A stretch of DNA of 38,526 nucleotides from Sneathiella sp. (GTDB lineage Bacteria > Pseudomonadota > Alphaproteobacteria > Sneathiellales > Sneathiellaceae), in contig NZ_NZMB01000010.1 of the NCBI RefSeq assembly GCF_002694385.1, forward strand, positions 141,694 to 180,219, in the 5' to 3' direction. Positions 27,761 through 38,526 of the stretch are shown piece after piece; the first letter of the stretch is position 1; every line of letters begins with the position of its first letter. Position numbers and translations under genes: made by a program. A model generated the notes under the pieces. That model was not told the origin of the DNA, ran no database searches, and saw only the letters and a program-made list of their open reading frames with translations.

Positions 27761-28495
27761 GTGAAAGACCTCGACTTTTCCAACAAAACAGCCCTCGTCG
27801 TCGGCGGATCCAGCGGGATCGGAAACGGCATCGCCCACGCGCTGAAAGACCGGGGCGCAACCGTTCATGTCTGGGGCACGCGCGATGCCGCCAAAGATTA
27901 CGATGGCGTCGAAGGGTCGGATTTACGCGGGCTGCATTATGACAAGATGGATGTCGCGGATTTTGACGCGATTGAGAATTATACTTCGCCTTTTGACACG
28001 CTGGACATTCTGGTGCTCTCGCAAGGCACAGTCGTTTATAACCGGGGCGAGTTCGAGATGCCCGGCTGGCTGAAGGTTATGGATGTCAATCTCAACAGCC
28101 TGATGGCCTGCGCCGCCAAGTTTGACGACATGCTGGAAGCCTCGAAAGGCTCCCTCGTCATCATCAGCTCCACCGCCGGATATCACGCGACAAAAGGCAA
28201 CCCCTCCTATAACGCCTCTAAAACCGGCGCGATCGGTCTTGTCCGCACGCTCGGACAGGCATGGGCCGGGCGGGGCATCCGGGTCAATGGCGTGGCGCCG
28301 GGACTTGTCGATACCAAGCTCACCAAGGTCACTACGGACAATCCCACACGCCGGGAAGCCGCCATTTCCCACATCCCGGCCAAACGTCTTGGTACGCCGG
28401 AGGATATTGCCGGGGCGGTGCTGTATCTCGCCTCTCCGCTCGCAAGCTATGTCTGCGGTCAGACCATTCCGGTCGATGGCGGGCTGATCCTTTAA
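27761..28495 (+). CDS. SDR family oxidoreductase
   Basis: A short-chain dehydrogenase of 244 residues: VVGGSSGIGNGIA (nucleotide-binding glycine motif), the serine region ISSTAGYHA, the catalytic pattern YNASKTG, VNGVAPGLVDTKL and the C-terminal VDGGLIL. The NNAG motif is replaced by LVLSQGTVVYN, a less common variant. The GTG start has AAGGGAG upstream. It lies 37 bases ahead of a second SDR gene in the same direction, so the two probably form an operon. The substrate is not deducible; the context suggests a hydroxyacyl-CoA or related alcohol. Confidence 0.86.
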   Translation: MKDLDFSNKTALVVGGSSGIGNGIAHALKDRGATVHVWGTRDAAKDYDGVEGSDLRGLHYDKMDVADFDAIENYTSPFDTLDILVLSQGTVVYNRGEFEMPGWLKVMDVNLNSLMACAAKFDDMLEASKGSLVIISSTAGYHATKGNPSYNASKTGAIGLVRTLGQAWAGRGIRVNGVAPGLVDTKLTKVTTDNPTRREAAISHIPAKRLGTPEDIAGAVLYLASPLASYVCGQTIPVDGGLIL

Positions 28496-28532
28496 CAGAC
28501 CGGATAACAGGGAACAGAAAAGGGAGCCGACA

Positions 28533-29312
28533 ATGGCGCGACTATCAAAACTGAGCCGGTCCATCGCGGGCAAAACCGCCCTCATCACCGGGGCGGCGAG
28601 CGGCATGGGGCGGGCGACGGCGCATCTGTTTGCCGATGAAGGCGCAAAAGTCGCCGTTATTGACCTGAATGCGGAGGGGGTGGAAAAGGTCGTCTCGGAA
28701 ATTCGCGATGCAGGTGGCAATGCACGGGGCTGGCAGCTTGACGTGGCCGATAAGGCGGAGATTGAAAAGGTTGTGCAGGAGGTTGCCGATCATTTCGGCG
28801 GGCTGGATATCCTGATCAACAATGCCGGTTTTTCCCACCACATGTCCGTTGAGCATGACGAGTTTGAAGCCAACTGGGCGCGGCATATGGATGTCATGCT
28901 CACCGCCCATGTCCGGATGGTGCGCGCGGCGTTGCCTTATCTCAAAAAATCCGGCGCAGGCCGGATTGTCAATATCGCCTCAACCGAAGGCCTCGGCGCA
29001 ACGCCGGGTATCTCTCCCTATACGTCCGCCAAACACGGGGTGATCGGTCTGACCCGGTCCCTGGCCGTGGAGCTGCCGAAATACGGCATTACCGTCAACT
29101 GCATCTGCCCCGGCGCTATTCATACCGGCATCACGGCCCGCATCAAGGATGAGCATAAGCAGATTTTCTCCCGCCGCCGGATCCCGCTCAACCGCTACGG
29201 AGAGCCGGAGGAGGTCGCGCATGCGACGCTCAGCCTTGTCCTGCCGGCCGCATCCTATATCAATGGCGTGGCCCTGCCCGTTGATGCGGGACTGACGATC
29301 AAGAACGCCTGA
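28533..29312 (+). CDS. SDR family oxidoreductase
   Basis: A classical SDR of 259 residues with TGAASGMGRATAHLF, LINNAGFSH, NIASTEGLGATPG, the catalytic YTSAKHG and VNCICPGAIHTGI, ending SYINGVALPVDAG. It resembles 3-oxoacyl-ACP reductase and hydroxyacyl dehydrogenase types, but the exact substrate is open. A good ribosome site (AAAAGGGAG) precedes the ATG. The paired SDR upstream and the acyl-CoA genes beyond suggest a redox step in degradation of a carboxylic acid. It converges with the MaoC-like gene, 36 bases away. Confidence 0.88.
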   Translation: MARLSKLSRSIAGKTALITGAASGMGRATAHLFADEGAKVAVIDLNAEGVEKVVSEIRDAGGNARGWQLDVADKAEIEKVVQEVADHFGGLDILINNAGFSHHMSVEHDEFEANWARHMDVMLTAHVRMVRAALPYLKKSGAGRIVNIASTEGLGATPGISPYTSAKHGVIGLTRSLAVELPKYGITVNCICPGAIHTGITARIKDEHKQIFSRRRIPLNRYGEPEEVAHATLSLVLPAASYINGVALPVDAGLTIKNA

Positions 29313-29348
29313 CGCAGGGCGCGAATAGCGGGCAGGATCGCCGAAAAT

Positions 29349-29813
29349 TCAGTTGCCGTTCCGGCATTTCATCATGCGCAGCGGTGTGTATTCGATCACC
29401 GTTTCTCCCCGCTGATTGACAATGCGATTGCGGGTGCGGACCAACCCGCGGCCGCGCTTCGAGGTCAGTCGTGCCTCGACCACTTCGCATTCCACATGAA
29501 TGGTATCTCCGGCCACGACGGGCCCGAGAATATTCAGCTCCATCCCGAGAAAGGCAACGCCGGTATGCTGAAGCGTGGCGACAAGAACCAGCCCTTCGGC
29601 CATGGAAAAGACCAGCGAACCCGGCGCCACACGCCCGCCCTTGATATCGGAATGCTGGGCAACATATTCCATATCCGTGAACAGGACTTCCGTCATGCCC
29701 GTCGCGCCGACGAAGTTGACGATATCCGGCTCTGTAATGGTTCGCCCTACCGTGCGAAAGGTCCGGCCAACGGGCAGATCCTCAAAATGCAGTCCCAGTC
29801 CGATCGTTTCCAT
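29349..29813 (-). CDS. MaoC-like hotdog protein lacking the hydratase Asp/His pair
   Basis: A hotdog-fold protein of 154 residues in the MaoC/acyl dehydratase family, as seen in FEDLPVGRTFRTVGRTIT, GGRVAPGSLVFSMAEGL and GDTIHVECEVVEAR. True (R)-enoyl-CoA hydratases carry a D-x-N-P-x-H motif. Aligned without gaps, this protein reads ATGMTEVLFTDMEYV, with Met40 in place of the Asp and Phe45 in place of the His. It is therefore unlikely to hydrate enoyl-CoA in the known way. It might be a thioesterase-like, binding or differently catalytic member. It is followed by an MFS permease on the other side, on the same strand (58-base gap). Confidence 0.83.
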   Translation of the reverse strand: METIGLGLHFEDLPVGRTFRTVGRTITEPDIVNFVGATGMTEVLFTDMEYVAQHSDIKGGRVAPGSLVFSMAEGLVLVATLQHTGVAFLGMELNILGPVVAGDTIHVECEVVEARLTSKRGRGLVRTRNRIVNQRGETVIEYTPLRMMKCRNGN

Positions 29814-29871
29814 GAAGCTGTTTTCCTTTGCTTGTTTTCATTTTTGCCGATACCGGCTTCTTTTTTGCAGC

Positions 29872-31107
29872 TTACGTCCCCGTTCGCGGGCTGGCAAGCA
29901 TCAGCCAGAGTCCAACCGCCCCGACCATAAGGGCGCAAACGCCATAGGCAGGCCAGTATTCACCGGTCTGCCCGACAATAAAACCGAACATTGTCGGCAG
30001 CATCAGGACACCCAGCGCCATCGTACTTGCGCCGAGGGCTGTTGCTTCGGTTCGGTACTCTCCGCCATAGGCCGCAAAGGCGGCATATCCGATGCCTGTG
30101 AACCCGCTTGCCGTTGAGCCGGCAAGGGATGCAATAAACAGAATGAGCCAGATAGACCAGTCTTCCGAGATTTGGCCCGCCGCGAGAGCGGCGACCGCCA
30201 TCACTAACCCGAGAATACCGAGCAGCCGGACGGAAGTGATAAATTTATCCGCCACCCAGCCCCAGAGCGGCCGACTGGCAACGCCCGATATCTGATACAC
30301 CGCCAGCACCTGCCCTGCCATAATCAGATCGACCCCGGCCCGCTCCGTCAGATGCAGGGCCATAAAACCGATAAAACAGAGCTGAACTCCGGCATAGAAA
30401 AAACAGGTCAGCGACAATCGCCTAAGCAACACGCTATCCCGCAAAAGATAGAAGGGGCGCCAGAATTCCGTCTTGAAAAGCTGATGCGCCGGTTTGCGGT
30501 CGACATCCCAGTCTTTGCGATATATCTGCAAAATAAAGATGACCAGCAGGATCGGCAAAATCTGTGCCCAGAACGCATGCTGCCAGCCGATCATCTGCGC
30601 CAGCCCGGGCATGATCAGCGCCGCCAACACACCGCCAAGCGGCACGCCGATCTGACGGATCGAGAAAACGAGATTAAGCGTTTTCGGATTTGTGCGCGGT
30701 ATCAGCAAATGTGTGGAAATCGGCGCAATCGCACCATATCCCACGGCCATAACAAAGGCACAGATCGCCATTGCGCTAAAACTGCCAATCCCGGCAATCA
30801 TCAACATCGATATGGCGCACAACATGGTAAACTGTGCAACCCGGACGCCGCCGAATTTCTGGATGAAATCCGGTGAAAAAAGCGCCGAGAACATGCTGAG
30901 GCCATATATGGTAGAGACAAAATAGCCGATCAGATGGCCATCCACTTCAAGATCACGAACAATGTCGGGAGCAAGCGTGGGCACCGCAAAAATTGCCATT
31001 GTCGCGAGTGCCTGCATGGCCGTCGTCATGACAAGCGGACCAAGAGGAAAGCCGGTCGGTGGATGGCTGTTATTCCCGGTTTCGCCCGGGTTATTATTAT
31101 TGGACAT
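29872..31107 (-). CDS. MFS transporter
   Basis: A permease of 411 residues with a hydrophilic N-terminus (MSNNNNPGETGNN) and twelve hydrophobic segments. Landmarks are FVSTIYGLSMFSALFSPDF, the loop FIQKFGGVR after helix 2, and WGWVADKF in the second half. The overall pattern resembles cyanate/NimT-type or sugar-acid MFS carriers, and the substrate is unknown. The start lies only 3 bases after the stop codon of an NTF2-like gene, so the two are co-translated. The MaoC-like gene is downstream on the same strand. Confidence 0.85.
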   Translation of the reverse strand: MSNNNNPGETGNNSHPPTGFPLGPLVMTTAMQALATMAIFAVPTLAPDIVRDLEVDGHLIGYFVSTIYGLSMFSALFSPDFIQKFGGVRVAQFTMLCAISMLMIAGIGSFSAMAICAFVMAVGYGAIAPISTHLLIPRTNPKTLNLVFSIRQIGVPLGGVLAALIMPGLAQMIGWQHAFWAQILPILLVIFILQIYRKDWDVDRKPAHQLFKTEFWRPFYLLRDSVLLRRLSLTCFFYAGVQLCFIGFMALHLTERAGVDLIMAGQVLAVYQISGVASRPLWGWVADKFITSVRLLGILGLVMAVAALAAGQISEDWSIWLILFIASLAGSTASGFTGIGYAAFAAYGGEYRTEATALGASTMALGVLMLPTMFGFIVGQTGEYWPAYGVCALMVGAVGLWLMLASPRTGT

Positions 31108-31110
31108 ATG

Positions 31111-31620
31111 TTAGGATCCGTTTCCCCGCGATCCCTTTTCCCGTGCGAGAAAGTCTTGCGTTTCCGGCGTCGCAATCAACATCTTCGCCCATTTGGCGCA
31201 AACTTTCGCAAGGCGTTCCGGCTGTACGCCGAGTTGCGCCATCGCGACCCCGCCATTTACGGATTCGCGATAATCAGCGATCAGGCCGCCCCTGAGTTCA
31301 AACCGGCTCATGCCGTCAATCACGACGCGGCGGCCCGCGAATTCCGGAACCGTCGATGTGAAGCTGGAAAGCGACCAGGCATAGGCGAGATCACCGTTAC
31401 AGACAGGATCAAACATCTCCCAACGGTAATCATCGCCCGCATCCCGGTGAAAAAGGTCCGACATCATATGGGAGATATCGGCCCGTCCCGTATGATCGCC
31501 ATAGACATAATCATGATAAACGGCATCCTCTGTAAAGCAGGCGGCGAAGGCATCCCCGTCCCCAGCCTCCGCCGCGGCGGAGAATCGTGCAAGCAATTCC
31601 GTGAATTCAGCAGTATTCAT
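31111..31620 (-). CDS. NTF2-like (SnoaL-type) protein
   Basis: A protein of 169 residues with an NTF2-like fold: helix FTELLARFSAAAEAGDGDAF, the strand CFTEDAVYHDYVYGD, and the curved sheet with GDLAYAWSLSSF, VVIDGMSRFELRGGLIADYRE. Acidic and aromatic residues line the presumed pocket. Function is unknown; family members act as small isomerases, dehydratases or binding proteins. It is directly upstream of an MFS gene (3-base gap) and divergent from the crotonase-like gene, with AGAGACAGGG before the ATG. Confidence 0.75.
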   Translation of the reverse strand: MNTAEFTELLARFSAAAEAGDGDAFAACFTEDAVYHDYVYGDHTGRADISHMMSDLFHRDAGDDYRWEMFDPVCNGDLAYAWSLSSFTSTVPEFAGRRVVIDGMSRFELRGGLIADYRESVNGGVAMAQLGVQPERLAKVCAKWAKMLIATPETQDFLAREKGSRGNGS

Positions 31621-31707
31621 CCCTGTCTCTTTTTATTGTTTTTCTGGCAACAGCATGCGATACGAATTTGATTCAATCCAGAGAATACTGAAAGAAACGA
31701 AATAAAA

Positions 31708-32490
31708 ATGCACGAATTCTCCCTGCTTCACTACACTGTAGAAGATGGCATTGCGGAAATCATTCTCGATAATCCGCCAGCCAATGTCATCAACCCGGAA
31801 ATGACGGCGGAATATTTTACCGCCCTTGATCTGGCGAACACAGACCCGGATGTGAAGATCATTCTCATCTCTGGCAAGGGCAAGGGGTTATCCGGAGGTG
31901 TCGACCTTAAATTGCTCGATACCTATGGCCCGACCGACATGAAGATCTTTCTGTCTAAATTCTATGTGGAAATGATCGAAAAAGTACGTAGCCTGTCCAA
32001 GCCCATTATGGCTGCGGTCCACGGTTATGCCATGGAAGGCGCCTGCACTCTTGCCTTCGCCTGCGACATGGTGATCGCATCTTCGGATGCAAAGTTCGGC
32101 TATCCGGGCGTTCCCAATCTTGCCGCCCCGCCCGGTATGCATGTCTGGTTCTTGCAGCGCTTGATCGGCCGCATGAAAGCTGCCGAGCTGATTTATACGG
32201 GCGACAGCATCTCCGCTGTGGAAGCGGAACGGCTCGGGATGATCACCCGTGTTGTCCCGCCGGAAGAGCTGATGTCAGAAAGCCGGAAGCTGGCGACAAA
32301 GGTTGCATCGATGTCTCCTGTCGGCTTGAAAGCGGCGCGGGAACTGATCTATCGGATGGAAAATATGGATTTCAAAACCGTCCCGGGTACGGCCCTTGAT
32401 GCGGTCGCGCTCGCCTTCGCATCAGAGGACAGCAAGGAAGCCAGAAGGGCCTTTGTTGAGAAGCGCAAGCCCGTCTGGACAGGGAAATAG
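31708..32490 (+). CDS. Crotonase-fold protein without the hydratase glutamates
   Basis: A crotonase-family protein of 260 residues. The CoA-binding and oxyanion-hole features are kept (GKGKGLSGGVDLKLL, KPIMAAVHGYAMEGAC). In enoyl-CoA hydratases two glutamates act on water. Aligned to the rat enzyme, the first is Thr114 (EGACTLAFACDM) and the second is Gly134 (FGYPGVPNL). Simple hydration is therefore improbable. The fold also supports isomerases, decarboxylases, hydrolases and C-C bond cleavage. The C-terminus (ARRAFVEKRKPVW) is normal. The ATG has only a weak ribosome site. The gene is divergent from the NTF2-like gene and ends in a hairpin. Confidence 0.86.
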   Translation: MHEFSLLHYTVEDGIAEIILDNPPANVINPEMTAEYFTALDLANTDPDVKIILISGKGKGLSGGVDLKLLDTYGPTDMKIFLSKFYVEMIEKVRSLSKPIMAAVHGYAMEGACTLAFACDMVIASSDAKFGYPGVPNLAAPPGMHVWFLQRLIGRMKAAELIYTGDSISAVEAERLGMITRVVPPEELMSESRKLATKVASMSPVGLKAARELIYRMENMDFKTVPGTALDAVALAFASEDSKEARRAFVEKRKPVWTGK

Positions 32491-32517
32491 GGCTGAAAGT
32501 TGGAATACTTTCAGCCC
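32490..32517. terminator. Hairpin between convergent genes
   Basis: A perfect 10-base stem, GGGCTGAAAG / CTTTCAGCCC, with an 8-base loop. Its first base is the last base of the crotonase-like stop codon, and the nitronate-monooxygenase-like gene ends 15 bases beyond. There is no T-run, so it may act as a bidirectional pause or as protection for transcript ends. Confidence 0.55.
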
Positions 32518-32532
32518 GGAAGATAAGCGCTA

Positions 32533-33510
32533 TTAAGCGGACAGCATCTTTGCCAGACGCCCCTGGATGATCTCTTCCGCATCCCCCATGATCCGGTCGA
32601 TCAGTTCCTTGCAGCTGGGCACGTCATGAATAAGGCCCGCAACCATGCCGCAACTCCAGGCACCGACATCCACGTCGCCCTTCTGCATCACCTTCGGATA
32701 AACGCCGCCCACCAGATCGACAATATCCTCGATCTTTGTATTGGCGCCTTTCTCCCGCTCGATCTCGATTACCTTTTCAACAGCCGGGTTGTTCAGCACC
32801 CGCTCGGTATTGCGCAAGGGGCGCATGATGAGGCGGGTGTCCAACTCGCTCGCCTTGACGATGGCATCCTTGACATTCTGATGAACCGGGGCTTCTTTCG
32901 TAACCATGAAACGGGTGCCCATGTTGATGCCGTCCGCGCCAAGCGCGAGAGACGCCGCAAGCTGCTGACCATTGCCGATACCGCCGGAGGCAACGAAAGG
33001 CACCGTCAATTCCTCCGCTGCGCGGGGCAGCAGGATCATGTTGGGGATATCATCTTCACCCGGATGGCCACCGCATTCAAACCCGTCCACACTCACCGCA
33101 TCACATCCGATTTTCTCGGCCTTCAGGGAATGGCGAACAGAGGTGCATTTGTGAATAACCTTGATCCCGGCATCTTTCAAAAGCGGCATATAGGCTTCGG
33201 GGCTGCGGCCCGCAGTTTCAACGATTTTCACCCCGCCTTTCACGATGGCGTCGATATACTCCGGATAGGGCGGCGCGCTGAAGGTCGGCAGGAAGGTCAG
33301 GTTAACGCCGATCGGCTTGTCCGTCATATCCTTGCAACGCGCGATCTCGTTGGCGAGGTCCTTCGGCGTTTTCTGAGTGAGCGCCGTAATGATGCCAAGA
33401 CCGCCCGCATTTGACACGGCCGCCGCCAGTTCGGCCAGCCCGACAAAATGCATGCCGCCCTGAATGATCGGATGCTCGATGCCAAAAAGTTCCGTGATTC
33501 TCGTTTTCAT
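32533..33510 (-). CDS. Nitronate monooxygenase-like FMN oxidoreductase
   Basis: A TIM-barrel flavoprotein of 325 residues from the nitronate monooxygenase / 2-nitropropane dioxygenase family, which also contains FabK-type enoyl reductases. Motifs include IEHPIIQGGM near the N-terminus, VSNAGGLGIITALT, GFECGGHPGED (the family's GGH region), VASGGIGNGQQLAASLALGADG and GTRFMVTKEA. Related proteins are often found beside acyl-CoA genes, where the real substrate is probably not a nitroalkane. The ATG has GGAG 7 bases upstream, and a promoter-like pair lies at 33540-33567. Confidence 0.87.
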   Translation of the reverse strand: MKTRITELFGIEHPIIQGGMHFVGLAELAAAVSNAGGLGIITALTQKTPKDLANEIARCKDMTDKPIGVNLTFLPTFSAPPYPEYIDAIVKGGVKIVETAGRSPEAYMPLLKDAGIKVIHKCTSVRHSLKAEKIGCDAVSVDGFECGGHPGEDDIPNMILLPRAAEELTVPFVASGGIGNGQQLAASLALGADGINMGTRFMVTKEAPVHQNVKDAIVKASELDTRLIMRPLRNTERVLNNPAVEKVIEIEREKGANTKIEDIVDLVGGVYPKVMQKGDVDVGAWSCGMVAGLIHDVPSCKELIDRIMGDAEEIIQGRLAKMLSA

Positions 33511-33539
33511 GGATGTCTCCAGTTGTTGTCATTCTTGAT

Positions 33540-33567
33540 TTTATAGAAAGGATCACCCGTACCGCAA
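33540..33567 (-). promoter_or_regulatory. Possible promoter of the nitronate-monooxygenase-like gene
   Basis: On the minus strand, TTGCGG (33562-33567) and TATAAA (33540-33545, five of six matches) are 16 bases apart, about 30 bases before the start at 33510. The -35 is weak. Confidence 0.35.
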
Positions 33568-33598
33568 TAGACCGTCGCATGGGGTAACCGTCAGGATA

Positions 33599-33627
33599 TG
33601 ATTCCGGATTGATCGCTTCCGGAATCA
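33599..33627 (-). terminator. Hairpin after the acyl-CoA dehydrogenase gene
   Basis: A perfect 10-base inverted repeat (TGATTCCGGA / TCCGGAATCA) with a 9-base loop, starting 32 bases past the dehydrogenase stop codon. On the minus strand no T-run follows; on the plus strand T-rich sequence follows after a few bases. It probably separates the ligase-dehydrogenase operon from the next gene. Confidence 0.5.
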
Positions 33628-33659
33628 GGCGTGTTTTTATTGCTTATTTCTCTCCCTTG

Positions 33660-35330
33660 TTACATCGGCGCCCCAGCCCGTTCCAGTATACTATTGAAAT
33701 CCGCCGTGTCCGCAAGCGTTCCATACGCACCGGACCAGTGATTGCCAAGACGCGAGGCACAAAACGCATCGGAGACCGCCTCAGGCGCATGCTGCACCAG
33801 CAGCGCCGCTTGCCAGGCGAGCGCCATCATTTCGGTAATACGGCGCGCTTTCGCTTCAAAATTGCCGCTCTCCCACACCATTGCTTTCAGAGAATCAAGA
33901 TGGGCGTCCAAAAGGCTGTTGCCTCCCCTCGCCTGCTCGATTTCCTGAAGAAACGCCGGCAGCGCTCCCTCATCGCGGTACAGCGCTCGCAGCACATCGA
34001 GGCAGATGACATTGCCCGACCCCTCCCAGATGCTGTTGACCGGCGCTTCCCGATAGAGGCGCGGAAGAATGCTTTCCTCGATATATCCGGGGCCACCATG
34101 GCATTCCATCGCCTCATAAACAAATCCGGGAGTTCGCTTGCATATCCAGTATTTTCCAATGGCCGTCCCGATCCTTGCCAGCGCCGCCTCCGCCGGATCC
34201 GTCTCAGCCGCGCCGATCGCCCGGCCAAGGCGCAGGAAAAGTGCCGTCGCCGCCTCGGATTCCAGCGCCAGGTCAGAAAGCACATTCTGCATCAGCGGCT
34301 GCTGGATCAGCTTTTTCTGAAAGGCGGACCGGTGGGATGTGTGGTGGAGGGCCTGTGTCAGAGCCTGCCGCATTAGCGACGCTGATCCGATGGCGCAATA
34401 ATAGCGGGTCCCCTGCACCATCTCGATAATTGTCCGGACACCGCGCCCTTCTTCGCCCAGCATCAGCCCCCAGCAATCGACAAGCTCCATCTCGCTCGAC
34501 GCATTGGATTTGTTGCCAAGCTTGTCCTTCAGCCGCTGGATATAAAGGCCGTTTCGCCCCCCATCCGGACGCCAGCGCGGCAGCAGGAAGCAGCTCAGAC
34601 CATTTTCCGTATAGGCAAGCGACAGAAATGCATCCGACATGGGGGCGGAGCAGAAAAATTTGTGTCCGGTCAGGAGATACGGCGCACCGGGGCCGGTCGC
34701 CGCCCCCTCGGGCCGCGCTGTCGTGGCGTTGGCGCGCACATCGGAGCCGCCCTGCTTTTCCGTCATGAACATGCCCATGGTGATGCTTTTCTTCTCGGCG
34801 GCCGGAATATCACGCGGGTCATAATCGGTTCTCAACAGGCGCGGAATCCATACATCGGCAATCTCCGGCGTCGCCTTCAATGCCGGAACCACCGCATAGC
34901 TCATCGCCATGGGACAGAGAACGCCCCCCTCAATCTGGTTGAGCAGATAGGAAAGGGCCCCATGGGCCACATGATTGCCCGGCCGCGGATTGTTCCAGGC
35001 AAAACTCGGGAGGTCATTCTCAATCGCCAGCGCCATCAGGCTATGGTAGGCGGGATGAAAGGTCACCTGATTGACCCGCATGCCATTCCGGTCAAAGGCC
35101 TTCATTTCCGGCGGATACCGGTTGGCCTGATTGGCCCATTCCATCACCTCTTCCGCCCCGGCCTTTCTGGCGAAATCGGCAACTTCCTGCATGGCCCAGC
35201 CCGCACCTTCCCGCGCCAGCCCTTCCTGCAGCGGTTTATCCACGCCCCACAGATCCTGATCCCCGAGGATGGGCGGAACATTTGTCACTTCGTGGGTAGG
35301 CAGGTTGGAAATCGGGCTTCGGGCGGTCAT
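33660..35330 (-). CDS. AidB-like acyl-CoA dehydrogenase
   Basis: An FAD enzyme of 556 residues of the AidB branch of acyl-CoA dehydrogenases. Characteristic segments are VTFHPAYHSLM, LCPMAMSYAVVPAL, the flavin loop MTEKQGGSDVRANAT, GHKFFCSAPMSDAFL, KDKLGNKSNASSEMEL, and YREAPVNSIWEGSGNVICLD. Glu436 in the last segment lies where the MCAD catalytic base is found. The start at 35330 (MTARSPISNLP) has AAGGAG 6 bases upstream; an ATG at 35390 overlaps the ligase gene and has no such site. It follows the ligase by 47 bases, so it probably oxidises the acyl-CoA made there. E. coli AidB is instead linked to alkylation response, so an adaptive role cannot be excluded. Confidence 0.88.
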   Translation of the reverse strand: MTARSPISNLPTHEVTNVPPILGDQDLWGVDKPLQEGLAREGAGWAMQEVADFARKAGAEEVMEWANQANRYPPEMKAFDRNGMRVNQVTFHPAYHSLMALAIENDLPSFAWNNPRPGNHVAHGALSYLLNQIEGGVLCPMAMSYAVVPALKATPEIADVWIPRLLRTDYDPRDIPAAEKKSITMGMFMTEKQGGSDVRANATTARPEGAATGPGAPYLLTGHKFFCSAPMSDAFLSLAYTENGLSCFLLPRWRPDGGRNGLYIQRLKDKLGNKSNASSEMELVDCWGLMLGEEGRGVRTIIEMVQGTRYYCAIGSASLMRQALTQALHHTSHRSAFQKKLIQQPLMQNVLSDLALESEAATALFLRLGRAIGAAETDPAEAALARIGTAIGKYWICKRTPGFVYEAMECHGGPGYIEESILPRLYREAPVNSIWEGSGNVICLDVLRALYRDEGALPAFLQEIEQARGGNSLLDAHLDSLKAMVWESGNFEAKARRITEMMALAWQAALLVQHAPEAVSDAFCASRLGNHWSGAYGTLADTADFNSILERAGAPM

Positions 35331-35377
35331 GATGAACTCCTTGGCAAGGCGCGATCCCTCTTTATACATCCATCCTT

Positions 35378-37264
35378 TCAACTCTGCCAAACAACTTCAT
35401 GACGCAGGGTATAAGGGCCCAGCTTCTCGGCAATGATCGGGGCCAGCGATGCCTGATCTCCCCCCTTGACCGTGACGGTCGCCAGGCTGCCATGCACAGG
35501 GTGATTGTCCACATTCACGGAAATATCGACACCCTTTCCTGAAAGGGAGGCCAGATCCGCCATAAAAACCTTTATCGCCGCATCATGGCGCAGCGCCGGC
35601 TTGAAAATCTTGCCAACGCCGGTCAGCGGCATCGTTTCGATCAGGGTCATGTCAACCGGATTGGCCGCCCGCTCGGGGATCCGCGCCCGCGCAAAATCCT
35701 TAAGCTCATCCGCCGTCGCTTTCGCGCCGGGCTTCAACTGCACATAGGCCACCGGCAATTCGCCCGCATAGGAATCAGGCCGCCCCACCGCCGCCGCCAG
35801 CTCAACTGCCGGATGTTCATGCAAGGCCTCCTCAATGATGGATGGATCAATATTATGGCCGCCCCGGATAATGACATCCTTGGCCCGCCCGGTCAGCCAG
35901 ATATACCCGTCCGCATCAATCCGGCCCAAATCACCGGAGCGCAACCAGCCATCTTTTGTGAAGGCCTTCCGGTTATAATCCGTCTGCACATAGCCCGGCA
36001 TGATCGAAACGCCCCGCATGATGATTTCACCGATTTCGTCCGGATCCGCAAATCGTTCGATTTGCCCCTCCTCATCCACATGCGCCGCGGCAATATCGGC
36101 ATAGGGAAGCCGCAACCCGACAGACCCGGGACGAGCCTCTCCGTTTTGCGGCTGCATGGTGATAAAGCATGTGGTCTCCGTCATGCCATACCCTTCAAGA
36201 ATAGGCGCCCGCGCATAGCCCGTCATTGCCTTCAGCACCTCTACCGGCGCAGCGGAACCCCCTGTCAAACCCGCGCGGAGTGTGCTGATATCCGCCTCCC
36301 CAACCGGAATATTCAACAGCGCCGACAGCATGGTCGGCACCCCGCCAAGAACGGTGATCCCGTATTTTTCCACCAGCCGCCAGTAATTGCCGACAATCAA
36401 CGGGTCGCGAAACCCCTGCGGACTGGTAATCACCAGCGTCGCGCCGTTCATGATGGGCACAATGCCGACAACAATGGAACCGCTGATATGAAACATCGGC
36501 AGGCCGGCAAGCAGACAATCCTTATCGGAATAGCCGAGCCCGAAGCCGCTTGACGCAATCTGTGCAAGCTGCATCCGGTTTGTATGCGGGGCGAGCTTGG
36601 GCACTCCGGTCGTCCCCCCCGTATGATAGTAGCCGACGATATCATCCGGTTCCTCGTTGATCGGCCCGTTAATCCGCGTCGCATCCTGCTGCATGATCAT
36701 GTCATCAAGGGGAAAAATCTTCTTCCCGTCGCATTCCGACCCACCGCCGAGAACATACACCGCCTTTAGGTTCGGCATCCGCTCCATCACATAGACGGCT
36801 TTGTTCCAAAGCTCTTCACTTAGGGCGCGCCCCGTGGCGATCAGAATGGTGGCATTCGCCGCCTCGGCAATCCCGAGAATATGCTCCGGCTCCAGCAATG
36901 GATTGACGGCATTCACCGTCCCCACCGCTTCCGCGCCGAACATCGTGAAATAAGCCTGCGGACATAAGGGAATGAGATAGGTAACGGTTTCCCCCTTCCG
37001 CAATCCTGCGGACAGGAACAGATTGGCCGTCTGATGGACCCTCGCCAATAACTCGCGATAGGTAATGACCCTGGGCTCTCCCATCGGATCCCCCGGCGGC
37101 AGGGCGATCAGCGATGGCTTGTCACCATATTGTTCCACAACCCCTTTGAGGGCGTCATAAATATTCCGGTACGGCACCCATTGTTCAACCGGAGTCTGTT
37201 CGAATTTTTCGACATCCTTGAGGGTAACAAAGGGCAAATTGAATTTTTTGAAGGCTTCCGCCAT
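35378..37264 (-). CDS. Acyl-CoA synthetase (AMP-dependent ligase)
   Basis: An adenylate-forming ligase of 628 residues that would activate a carboxylic acid to its CoA thioester. Motifs occur in order: YHTGGTTGVPKLAPHTN (phosphate loop), ILEGYGMTETTCF, LRSGDLGRIDADGYIWLTGR, KDVIIRGGHNIDPSIIEEAL and the catalytic lysine in PLTGVGKIFKP. An extra C-terminal segment of about 60 residues (SGKGVDISVNVDNHPVHGS) follows. The chain preference is unknown. The start at 37264 is preferred because GGGAGGA lies just upstream; the frame runs back to 37408 without support. An inverted repeat sits 24 bases before the start. Confidence 0.92.
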   Translation of the reverse strand: MAEAFKKFNLPFVTLKDVEKFEQTPVEQWVPYRNIYDALKGVVEQYGDKPSLIALPPGDPMGEPRVITYRELLARVHQTANLFLSAGLRKGETVTYLIPLCPQAYFTMFGAEAVGTVNAVNPLLEPEHILGIAEAANATILIATGRALSEELWNKAVYVMERMPNLKAVYVLGGGSECDGKKIFPLDDMIMQQDATRINGPINEEPDDIVGYYHTGGTTGVPKLAPHTNRMQLAQIASSGFGLGYSDKDCLLAGLPMFHISGSIVVGIVPIMNGATLVITSPQGFRDPLIVGNYWRLVEKYGITVLGGVPTMLSALLNIPVGEADISTLRAGLTGGSAAPVEVLKAMTGYARAPILEGYGMTETTCFITMQPQNGEARPGSVGLRLPYADIAAAHVDEEGQIERFADPDEIGEIIMRGVSIMPGYVQTDYNRKAFTKDGWLRSGDLGRIDADGYIWLTGRAKDVIIRGGHNIDPSIIEEALHEHPAVELAAAVGRPDSYAGELPVAYVQLKPGAKATADELKDFARARIPERAANPVDMTLIETMPLTGVGKIFKPALRHDAAIKVFMADLASLSGKGVDISVNVDNHPVHGSLATVTVKGGDQASLAPIIAEKLGPYTLRHEVVWQS

Positions 37265-37512: not shown

Positions 37513-38526
37513 TCAAACCCGGTCAGCCCGCAGCGCTTTCGCCGCCGCCACCATATTGACGAGCGCCGGGCGCACCTCTTCCCAACGCCGGGTTTTCAAT
37601 CCGCAATCCGGATTGACCCAGAGCTGTTCCGGCGTAAGACGCTGTTTCGCAAGTTTAATCAGCGCCGACATGTCGTCAGCACCGGGAATACGCGGCGAGT
37701 GAATGTCATAGACACCCGGTCCGATTTCATTCGGATATTGATAGTTCAGGAAGGCATCCAGCAATTCCATCTTGGATCTGGATGTTTCAATGGAAATTAC
37801 ATCCGCATCCATATCTGCGATCGCCGCGATGATATCATTGAACTCCGAATAACACATATGCGTATGAATTTGGGTCGCATCCGCGACGCCGGACGCGCAG
37901 AGGCGGAAGCTGTCAACGGCCCAGTCAAGATAGCTTTTCCATTCCGATGTTTTAAGCGGCAGCCCTTCACGCAGCGCGGCTTCATCAATCTGGATCATTT
38001 TTGCCCCCGCCTTTTCAAGGTCGGCCACCTCATCCCGGATGGCCAGTGCAATCTGGCGGCAGCTTTCACGCCGCGGAATATCATCCCGCACAAACGACCA
38101 GTTCAAGATCGTCACTGGGCCGGTCAGCATCCCCTTGACAGGCTTTTCCGTGCATGACTGCGCAAAGTTCCACCAGTCAACGGTCATTGCATGGGGGCGG
38201 GAAACATCTCCAAACAAAATCGGAGGCCGGACATATCGGGAACCATAGCTTTGCACCCACCCGTGTTTCGTAAAGGCAAAGCCGGACAGCTTCTCCCCAA
38301 AATACTGCACCATGTCATTGCGTTCAAATTCGCCATGGACCAGCACATCGAGGCCGATTTCCTCCTGCCAGTGAATTGCCGCTTCGGTCTCGTTTCGAAG
38401 GAAGCTTGCATACTCCGTATCACTCAATTGCTGCTTTGTATGCGCGGCGCGCGCCTTCCTCACCTCAGCAGTCTGCGGGAAAGAGCCAATCGTCGTCGTT
38501 GGAAAAAGCGGCAGCTTCAGTATATC
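37513..38526 (-). CDS. metE: Cobalamin-independent methionine synthase, C-terminal part (cut by window edge)
   Basis: The visible 337 residues are the catalytic barrel of MetE, which transfers a methyl group from 5-methyltetrahydropteroyl-polyglutamate to homocysteine. The frame is open to the right edge and begins in the family sequence [20 protein letters not shown], so the N-terminal half lies outside the window. A GTG at 38463 inside this conserved segment is not the start. The zinc-site residues are visible: His and Cys in [14 protein letters not shown], Glu in [10 protein letters not shown] and Cys in [13 protein letters not shown]. Other family marks are [30 protein letters not shown] and [13 protein letters not shown]. 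The substrate and zinc ligands appear intact. Confidence 0.96.

What the first reader, a model, noticed from the sequence alone, without database searches (positions are those of the whole stretch)
27761..37264. Possible undescribed CoA-thioester degradation route
The set contains an acyl-CoA ligase plus AidB-like dehydrogenase operon, a nitronate-monooxygenase-like flavoprotein, a crotonase-fold protein, a MaoC-like protein, two SDRs, an MFS permease and an NTF2-like protein. This covers uptake, activation, oxidation and further conversion. The lack of a thiolase and of catalytically normal hydratases argues against plain beta-oxidation of a fatty acid.
Basis: inference. Interest (0 to 1): 0.6.

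Follow-up and report, generated by a model that had tools for sequence, protein, structure and literature searches.

The report
Sneathiella acyl-CoA breakdown gene island
A block of nine genes in a marine bacterium (Sneathiella) looks like the trimmed form of a larger gene island for taking up and breaking down an unknown carboxylic acid; most of its parts are known enzyme types, but two of them have lost the usual active-site residues and probably do something other than their names suggest.

Summary
Both hydratase-like proteins lack the hydratase catalytic residues, and the loss is conserved (9 of 9 crotonase, 12 of 12 MaoC-like orthologues read in the genus). The block occurs in 12-13 of 24 Sneathiella genomes; carriers lie on one side of a fully supported rpoB branch. 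It was not seen whole outside the genus (8 of 80 AidB loci, all eight from genus genomes). In G020 and G022 the locus is larger (aldehyde dehydrogenase, TcuA-like flavoprotein, TauD dioxygenase, second crotonase, EmrB efflux, HxlR regulator), so the window copy is probably a trimmed form. SDR1, SDR2 and the NMO-like flavoprotein recur together in some other families. The closest known scheme is IpdF/IpdC/EchA20 of steroid-ring catabolism (PMC5380842), but no IpdAB was seen in the island and the dehydrogenase and flavoprotein types differ. The "no thiolase" argument fails: 12 thiolase domains lie elsewhere in the genome. Substrate unknown. Verdict: a real, lineage-specific acyl-CoA island, a new variant of a known kind; the MaoC-like family with invariant Glu/Phe in place of the dyad is its most novel element.

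The parts
27761..28495 (+). SDR1, short-chain dehydrogenase/reductase with YxxxK present
   Evidence: same 12 of 24 genus genomes as the close AidB orthologue
28533..29312 (+). SDR2, short-chain dehydrogenase, over the cut-off of NF005559 (named 'glucose 1-dehydrogenase')
   Evidence: 224.7 vs 215 bits; linked with SDR1 and/or NMO in some other families
29349..29813 (-). MaoC-like protein without the hydratase Asp/His dyad (TGMTEVLF)
29872..31107 (-). MFS permease
   Evidence: 13 of 24 genus genomes
31111..31620 (-). NTF2/SnoaL-like protein
   Evidence: conserved in the carriers
31621..31707 (.). divergent intergenic region between the NTF2-like and crotonase genes, with a mostly conserved TATGAT-like box (weak)
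   Evidence: alignment of 10 copies
31708..32490 (+). crotonase-fold protein with both hydratase Glu lost (GACTLAF, YPGVPN)
   Evidence: missing from the locus in G001, G003, G019
32533..33510 (-). NMO-family flavoprotein of the PA1024 type
   Evidence: conserved well beyond the cluster
33660..35390 (-). AidB-type acyl-CoA dehydrogenase with the WEGSGN glutamate; probable start at 35330
35378..37264 (-). acyl-CoA ligase of subfamily NF005714 (PRK07529)
   Evidence: 670.2 vs 632 bits

Best explanation
A lineage-specific catabolic island for an exogenous carboxylic acid, probably branched or alicyclic, working through CoA thioesters. Inferred steps: the MFS permease imports the acid; the ligase makes the CoA thioester; the AidB-type dehydrogenase desaturates it; SDR1 and SDR2 oxidise hydroxyl groups to ketones; the NMO-family flavoprotein moves electrons between NAD(H), the substrate or quinones; the crotonase-fold and MaoC-like proteins act on the resulting 3-oxo or enoyl thioester as C-C hydrolase, isomerase or binding protein rather than as hydratases; thiolysis is done by thiolases encoded elsewhere. 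It would thus work like the IpdF (SDR) + IpdC (NMO-fold flavoprotein) + EchA20 (ring-opening crotonase) module of steroid-ring catabolism, without being that pathway. Shown here: gene identities, loss of hydratase residues, restriction to one group of the genus, a larger locus in relatives, recurrent SDR1/SDR2/NMO linkage in some other families. Inferred: every reaction, the order of steps, the substrate class, and that the larger locus is the older state.
For: Gene content; WEGSGN glutamate and SDR YxxxK present, ligase over its subfamily cut-off. Same-strand sets NTF2-MFS-MaoC (gaps 3 and 58 bases) and ligase-AidB-NMO (gaps about 47 and 149 bases). Close AidB (74% or more) and SDR1 in the same 12 of 24 genomes, MFS in those plus G010, which is 65% complete. 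SDR1 and/or SDR2 with NMO or with each other in other families: G072, G188, G273 (one family), G322 (SDR1-crotonase-NMO in a row), G356 and G197 (SDR1-SDR2); this is 5 of 14 SDR1 loci fetched outside the genus (two of the 14 picked as relatives of G072) plus G072. Ligase-AidB proximity recurs with distant ligases in 7 of 80 loci. G020 and G022 add oxidative genes, EmrB and HxlR. The MaoC-like family sits among acyl-CoA dehydrogenases and CoA-transferases in 4 of 4 plasmid regions read, of 40 records matched. Precedent: PMC5380842 (abstract and passages).
Against: The crotonase gene is missing from the locus in 3 of 13 carriers (G001, G003, G019), and G003 has no match at E<=1e-52 among its scored candidates, so a ring-opening role for it cannot be essential. 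No IpdAB-like gene was seen in the island. NMO stands without the other close partners in six cluster-free Sneathiella loci and in many other families, and an HxlR-family gene lies within about 2 kb of it in 11 of 33 loci, which suggests an independent quinone or electrophile module. 9 of 14 SDR1 loci fetched outside the genus show neither SDR2 nor NMO. In cluster-free G005, G012 and G014, ligase (57-61%), crotonase (65-68%) and MaoC-like (65-68%) relatives are scattered. Carriers are one group, so co-occurrence counts as one event.
Confidence: 0.4

Rival explanations
1. Not one pathway: a ligase-AidB unit, a quinone-detoxification flavoprotein, an SDR pair and an NTF2-MFS-MaoC operon happen to be neighbours in one group of species.
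For: NMO conserved and apart from the rest in many genomes; HxlR-family gene near NMO in 11 of 33 loci; background gene order is high, including unrelated copper-ATPase and DUF308 genes; relatives of the parts are scattered in cluster-free genomes; 9 of 14 outside SDR1 loci show no link.
Against: SDR1, SDR2 and NMO are linked again in some other families; close AidB, MFS and SDR1 are all missing from the same 11 of 24 genomes, though five of these have a 54-60% AidB relative elsewhere.
Confidence: 0.25
2. Ordinary beta-oxidation of a long or branched fatty acid: ligase and dehydrogenase are local; hydratase, 3-hydroxyacyl-CoA dehydrogenase and thiolase come from elsewhere in the genome; the odd crotonase and MaoC-like proteins are accessory.
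For: 12 thiolase domains over cut-off and 43 ligase-like matches, the query included, in the genome; the crotonase can be lost.
Against: Ligase subfamily, AidB-type dehydrogenase, NMO and SDRs are not the usual fad set (recalled); the larger locus carries TauD, TcuA-like and aldehyde dehydrogenase genes, unusual for fatty acids.
Confidence: 0.2
3. A biosynthetic or export locus: SnoaL-like protein, SDRs, ligase and EmrB pump make and export a secondary metabolite.
For: SnoaL-like domain and DHA2/EmrB efflux genes beside MaoC in G001, G008, G010, G015, G020, G022.
Against: No synthase or carrier-protein gene among the ten window proteins scanned; no EmrB gene in the gap beside MaoC in the window (36 bases).
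Confidence: 0.1
4. The steroid HIP (C/D-ring) pathway itself.
For: Same enzyme classes: ligase, acyl-CoA dehydrogenase, SDR, NMO-fold flavoprotein, non-hydratase crotonase.
Against: No IpdAB pair among the genes scanned or mapped; the dehydrogenase is AidB-type and the flavoprotein PA1024-type.
Confidence: 0.05

Closest known systems
IpdF/IpdC/EchA20 module of steroid C/D-ring (HIP) catabolism (PMC5380842)
   Same: SDR plus FabK-like flavoprotein acting together on a CoA thioester, then a crotonase-superfamily member that opens a ring; a ligase and acyl-CoA dehydrogenases belong to the pathway
   Different: No IpdAB seen in the island; AidB-type dehydrogenase; PA1024-type flavoprotein; crotonase can be lost
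PA1024 NADH:quinone oxidoreductase (2GJL, 6E2A; PMC10033279)
   Same: Best solved relative of the NMO-like protein (390 bits; its own score in a genome search is 720); the paper says genome context suggests quinone detoxification and an NAD+/NADH ratio favourable for fatty-acid catabolism
   Different: Gate residues Q80 and Y261 align with Phe77 and Ile260 here
ChsH1-ChsH2 and Shy, MaoC steroid hydratases (PMC11321319, passages)
   Same: The ChsH2 MaoC domain lacks the catalytic residues and binds the bulky substrate
   Different: No second MaoC gene among the genes scanned in the island; Asp/His replaced by Met/Phe with an invariant Glu between them
AidB-type acyl-CoA dehydrogenases (E. coli AidB 3DJL; 5EZ3)
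   Same: AidB N-terminal domain and acyl-CoA dehydrogenase domains
   Different: Next to a CoA ligase; below the curated cut-off of NCBIfam NF008594

Membership tests
Crotonase-type enoyl-CoA hydratase | two catalytic Glu (rat E144, E164; numbers recalled) | tested here: not met
   Thr and Gly in the alignments to two solved hydratases; conserved in 9 of 9 orthologues read
MaoC-type (R)-hydratase | Asp/His dyad | tested here: not met
   Met and Phe; 12 of 12 in the genus; in 38 of 38 distinct rows over 120 bits in the loci held, the motif has Glu and Phe and no dyad
PA1024-type NADH:quinone oxidoreductase | close full-length similarity | tested here: met
   E 1e-115 over residues 2-324
PA1024-type NADH:quinone oxidoreductase | Q80-Y261 gate | tested here: not met
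   Phe and Ile at the aligned places; Q80 mutants of PA1024 keep a similar kcat, so this limits rather than excludes the activity
PA1024-type NADH:quinone oxidoreductase | class motifs of Ball et al. 2016 (recalled that motifs are given) | not tested
   paper not held
NCBIfam NF008594 (PRK11561, matched by AidB-type proteins) | score over the curated cut-off | tested here: not met
   497.6 vs 545 bits; Pfam AidB_N is matched at 188 bits
Acyl-CoA ligase subfamily NF005714 | score over the curated cut-off | tested here: met
   670.2 vs 632 bits
HIP (IpdABCF/EchA20) pathway | IpdAB pair | tested here: inconclusive
   none among the ten window proteins scanned or the genes scanned or mapped in relatives' loci; the rest of the window and genome was not searched for it
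HIP (IpdABCF/EchA20) pathway | FabK-like IpdC | tested here: inconclusive
   FabK model TIGR03151 matched at 266 bits, cut-off 453; no IpdC sequence at hand

The most novel reading that the evidence does not exclude
The MaoC-like family seen here (xTG[MFIL]xE..F: Asp and His replaced, an invariant Glu in between) is an undescribed non-hydratase enzyme with its own catalytic Glu, found in many alpha- and some betaproteobacterial acyl-CoA islands, and the Sneathiella island is a new route for an alicyclic or terpenoid acid in which this enzyme, the Glu-less crotonase and the SDR/NMO trio replace standard hydration and thiolysis.
Probability: 0.15. Interest if true: 0.7.

Novelty: new variant of a known kind. 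Interest (0 to 1): 0.4.

Why it matters
If the reading holds, it ties proteins that databases name as hydratases and nitronate monooxygenases to other chemistry in marine carbon turnover, and it marks the MaoC-like family and the SDR1/SDR2/NMO trio as testable targets in Sneathiella isolates. If it does not hold, the case still shows that the label 'MaoC dehydratase' is doubtful for a whole conserved family.

Tried and rejected
Rejected: 'no thiolase, therefore not beta-oxidation' (12 thiolase domains elsewhere). Rejected: the methionine synthase piece at the right edge as a broken gene; the window cuts a MetE ORF that is 780 aa long in the genome, with ambiguous bases. Rejected: gene-order conservation within the genus as strong proof of function, since unrelated neighbours are kept too.

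Led nowhere: structure models of the MaoC-like and NTF2-like proteins had mean pLDDT 56.6 and 45.9 from nine-row alignments and were not used; no fold search was run. Plasmid search with the crotonase: no match at E<=1e-50. Ligase matches on two plasmids: the one region read has an NTF2-family gene about 3 kb off that does not match the window's, and no other partner. The divergent intergenic region has conserved boxes but no clear operator. NTF2-like neighbourhoods in 14 loci: no close partner, only 27-29% crotonase relatives near three (neighbours of nine of the 14 printed). My simple ORF caller can pick antisense ORFs in GC-rich loci: eight of ten L284 ORFs had no NCBIfam match and several were replaced when re-called by codon-position GC; the re-called ORFs were not scanned and no function is claimed for them.
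Full report
What is there. The window lies in a 3.6 Mb genome (G000:C23). Its genus is Sneathiella by inference: named Sneathiella records carry contigs of the same lengths as same-genus G genomes (271400, 1075515, 1292871 and 1080291 bases). On the minus strand, ligase, AidB and NMO form one set and NTF2-like, MFS and MaoC-like another; the crotonase gene diverges from the second set across 87 bases, and the SDR pair is on the plus strand. G+C is 0.53-0.60 in the region; the 30-32 kb bin (0.534) is the lowest of the window, a mild dip.

The odd enzymes. Against two solved hydratases the crotonase has Thr and Gly at the two catalytic Glu, in all nine orthologues read. Relatives in two other families keep GACTLAF and FGYPGVPN where the match covers them; one of these, in G207, is split over two frames. 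The MaoC-like protein has Met and Phe for the Asp/His dyad, in 12 of 12 genus copies. In 20 of 20 loci fetched elsewhere, three of them from cluster-free genomes of the same genus, and in 38 of 38 distinct rows the motif keeps a Glu and a Phe. So this is a stable family, not decay. A MaoC domain without the dyad and with a binding role is known in ChsH2 (PMC11321319, passages). The SDR YxxxK and the WEGSGN glutamate of the AidB-type protein are present.

The flavoprotein. Its best solved relative is PA1024, described as an NADH:quinone oxidoreductase; the paper says genome context suggests quinone detoxification and an NAD+/NADH ratio favourable for fatty-acid catabolism (PMC10033279, passages). 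The gate pair Q80/Y261 aligns with Phe77 and Ile260 here. An HxlR-family gene lies within about 2 kb of NMO in 11 of 33 NMO loci, four of them in other genera. That HxlR regulators can sense quinones is recalled. In four of the six cluster-free Sneathiella loci a 31-33% crotonase relative lies within about 3 kb of NMO (L043-L046).

Distribution. Close AidB orthologues (74% or more) and SDR1 occur in the same 12 of 24 genus genomes, and MFS in those 12 plus G010, which is 65% complete. Five of the others have a 54-60% AidB relative whose fetched surroundings, in four of them, show none of the other parts. On an rpoB tree of 18 of the 24 genomes the carriers (10 rows, G010 counted as one) lie on one side of a branch with support 100/100; the tree is midpoint-rooted, so a clade is not proven. 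Co-occurrence is therefore one event and argues for inheritance more than for function. Of 137 AidB relatives found in named genomes by two peptide patterns, 80 loci were kept; 9 have the close ligase and 8 have NMO, MaoC, MFS and NTF2 as well. One other locus (L071) has a 44% NMO relative nearby. In 386 class genomes the MaoC-like family is found in 56 and the NTF2-like in 44; in 337, the crotonase in 7, the ligase in 27 and SDR1 in 34, each at its own E-value limit and with only the best candidates scored.

A larger locus in relatives. In G020 and G022 the SDR pair is followed by an aldehyde dehydrogenase, an HIBDH-like gene, a TcuA-like flavoprotein (583 bits, cut-off 369), a TauD dioxygenase and a second crotonase, then EmrB efflux, MaoC, MFS, NTF2, crotonase, NMO, HxlR, AidB, a DHDPS-family gene, ligase, polysaccharide deacetylase, a saccharopine-dehydrogenase-like gene and, in G022, a PfkB kinase. 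The aldehyde dehydrogenase is read from its match to the PutA protein and the HIBDH-like gene from its N-terminal sequence; neither was scanned. G002, G010, G013 and others have parts of this. G022 and G010 lie outside the other carriers on the rpoB tree (G020 and G013 are not on it), so the larger locus is probably older and the window copy a trimmed form with MetE next to the ligase; gains in those lineages are not excluded. The crotonase is missing from the locus in G001, G003 and G019, which counts against its being essential.

Linkage outside the genus. NMO, SDR2 and SDR1 lie in one same-strand run in G072 with a Rieske oxygenase, an Fe-alcohol dehydrogenase and an HSL-type esterase; a P450, a monooxygenase distantly like pentalenolactone D synthase and a ligase lie nearby. 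G188 and G273 of the same family repeat the trio. G322 has SDR1, a crotonase (PRK07509, over cut-off) and NMO in a row, with a thiolase about 4 kb on. G356 and G197 have SDR1 beside SDR2; G075 has NMO and SDR2 about 8 kb apart. Of 14 SDR1 loci fetched from the 32 matched genomes outside the genus, 5 show such a link and 9 do not. Ligase-AidB proximity recurs with distant ligases in 7 of 80 loci. On plasmids the MaoC-like family lies among acyl-CoA dehydrogenases and CoA-transferases in 4 of 4 regions read, of 40 records matched; one also holds a 38% NMO relative.

How it most likely works. Import, CoA activation and desaturation follow from the families. The recurrent SDR/NMO link and the Glu-less crotonase recall IpdF, IpdC and EchA20, where the SDR and the FabK-like flavoprotein did not act on their substrate without each other and the crotonase-superfamily member opens a ring (PMC5380842, abstract and passages). 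I take that as the working model for what it works like. It is not membership: no IpdAB was seen in the island, and the dehydrogenase and flavoprotein types differ. Thiolysis can be supplied by the 12 thiolases elsewhere. The substrate, the order of steps and all reactions are inference.

Literature. The listings of searches (8 of 32 papers listed in the last) show no paper on this cluster, and that of one search none on this MaoC-like family; the library is open-licence only. PMC12543098 (passages) reports an AidB homologue whose disruption was beneficial on adipate.

Noticed in passing
L057 (G072:C2:1-17200), also L296 and L297: A compact island in a 1.4 Mb genome with P450, Rieske oxygenase, a monooxygenase distantly like pentalenolactone D synthase, HSL-type esterase, Fe-alcohol dehydrogenase, several SDRs, NMO and a CoA ligase (annotated in L057 only): looks like a terpenoid or cyclic-ketone route.
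   Followed up: partly
NMO loci L036, L038-L042, L048, L050, L054, L056, L060: An HxlR-family regulator gene lies near the PA1024-type flavoprotein gene in 11 of 33 loci; a possible quinone- or electrophile-responsive module.
   Followed up: partly
L059 (G009:C11:552426-553387): The close NMO copy of G009 is split over two frames with a stop, as if broken or mis-assembled.
   Followed up: no
window 37513-38526; L234:3207-5549: MetE is cut by the window edge; in the genome it is a 780 aa ORF with ambiguous bases.
   Followed up: yes
L033:6836-8251: The EmrB-type gene beside MaoC in G015 is split into two ORFs, in line with erosion of the locus.
   Followed up: no
L269 (Pseudosulfitobacter plasmid) and L270 (Paraburkholderia sprentiae plasmid): The MaoC-like gene lies near a thiolase plus OB-fold partner, several acyl-CoA dehydrogenases and CoA-transferases; the thiolase/OB-fold pair resembles retro-aldol lyases of steroid side chains (recalled).
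   Followed up: no
L043-L046 (G014, G005, G018, G023): In cluster-free Sneathiella genomes a different crotonase (31-33% to the window's) lies within about 3 kb of NMO.
   Followed up: no
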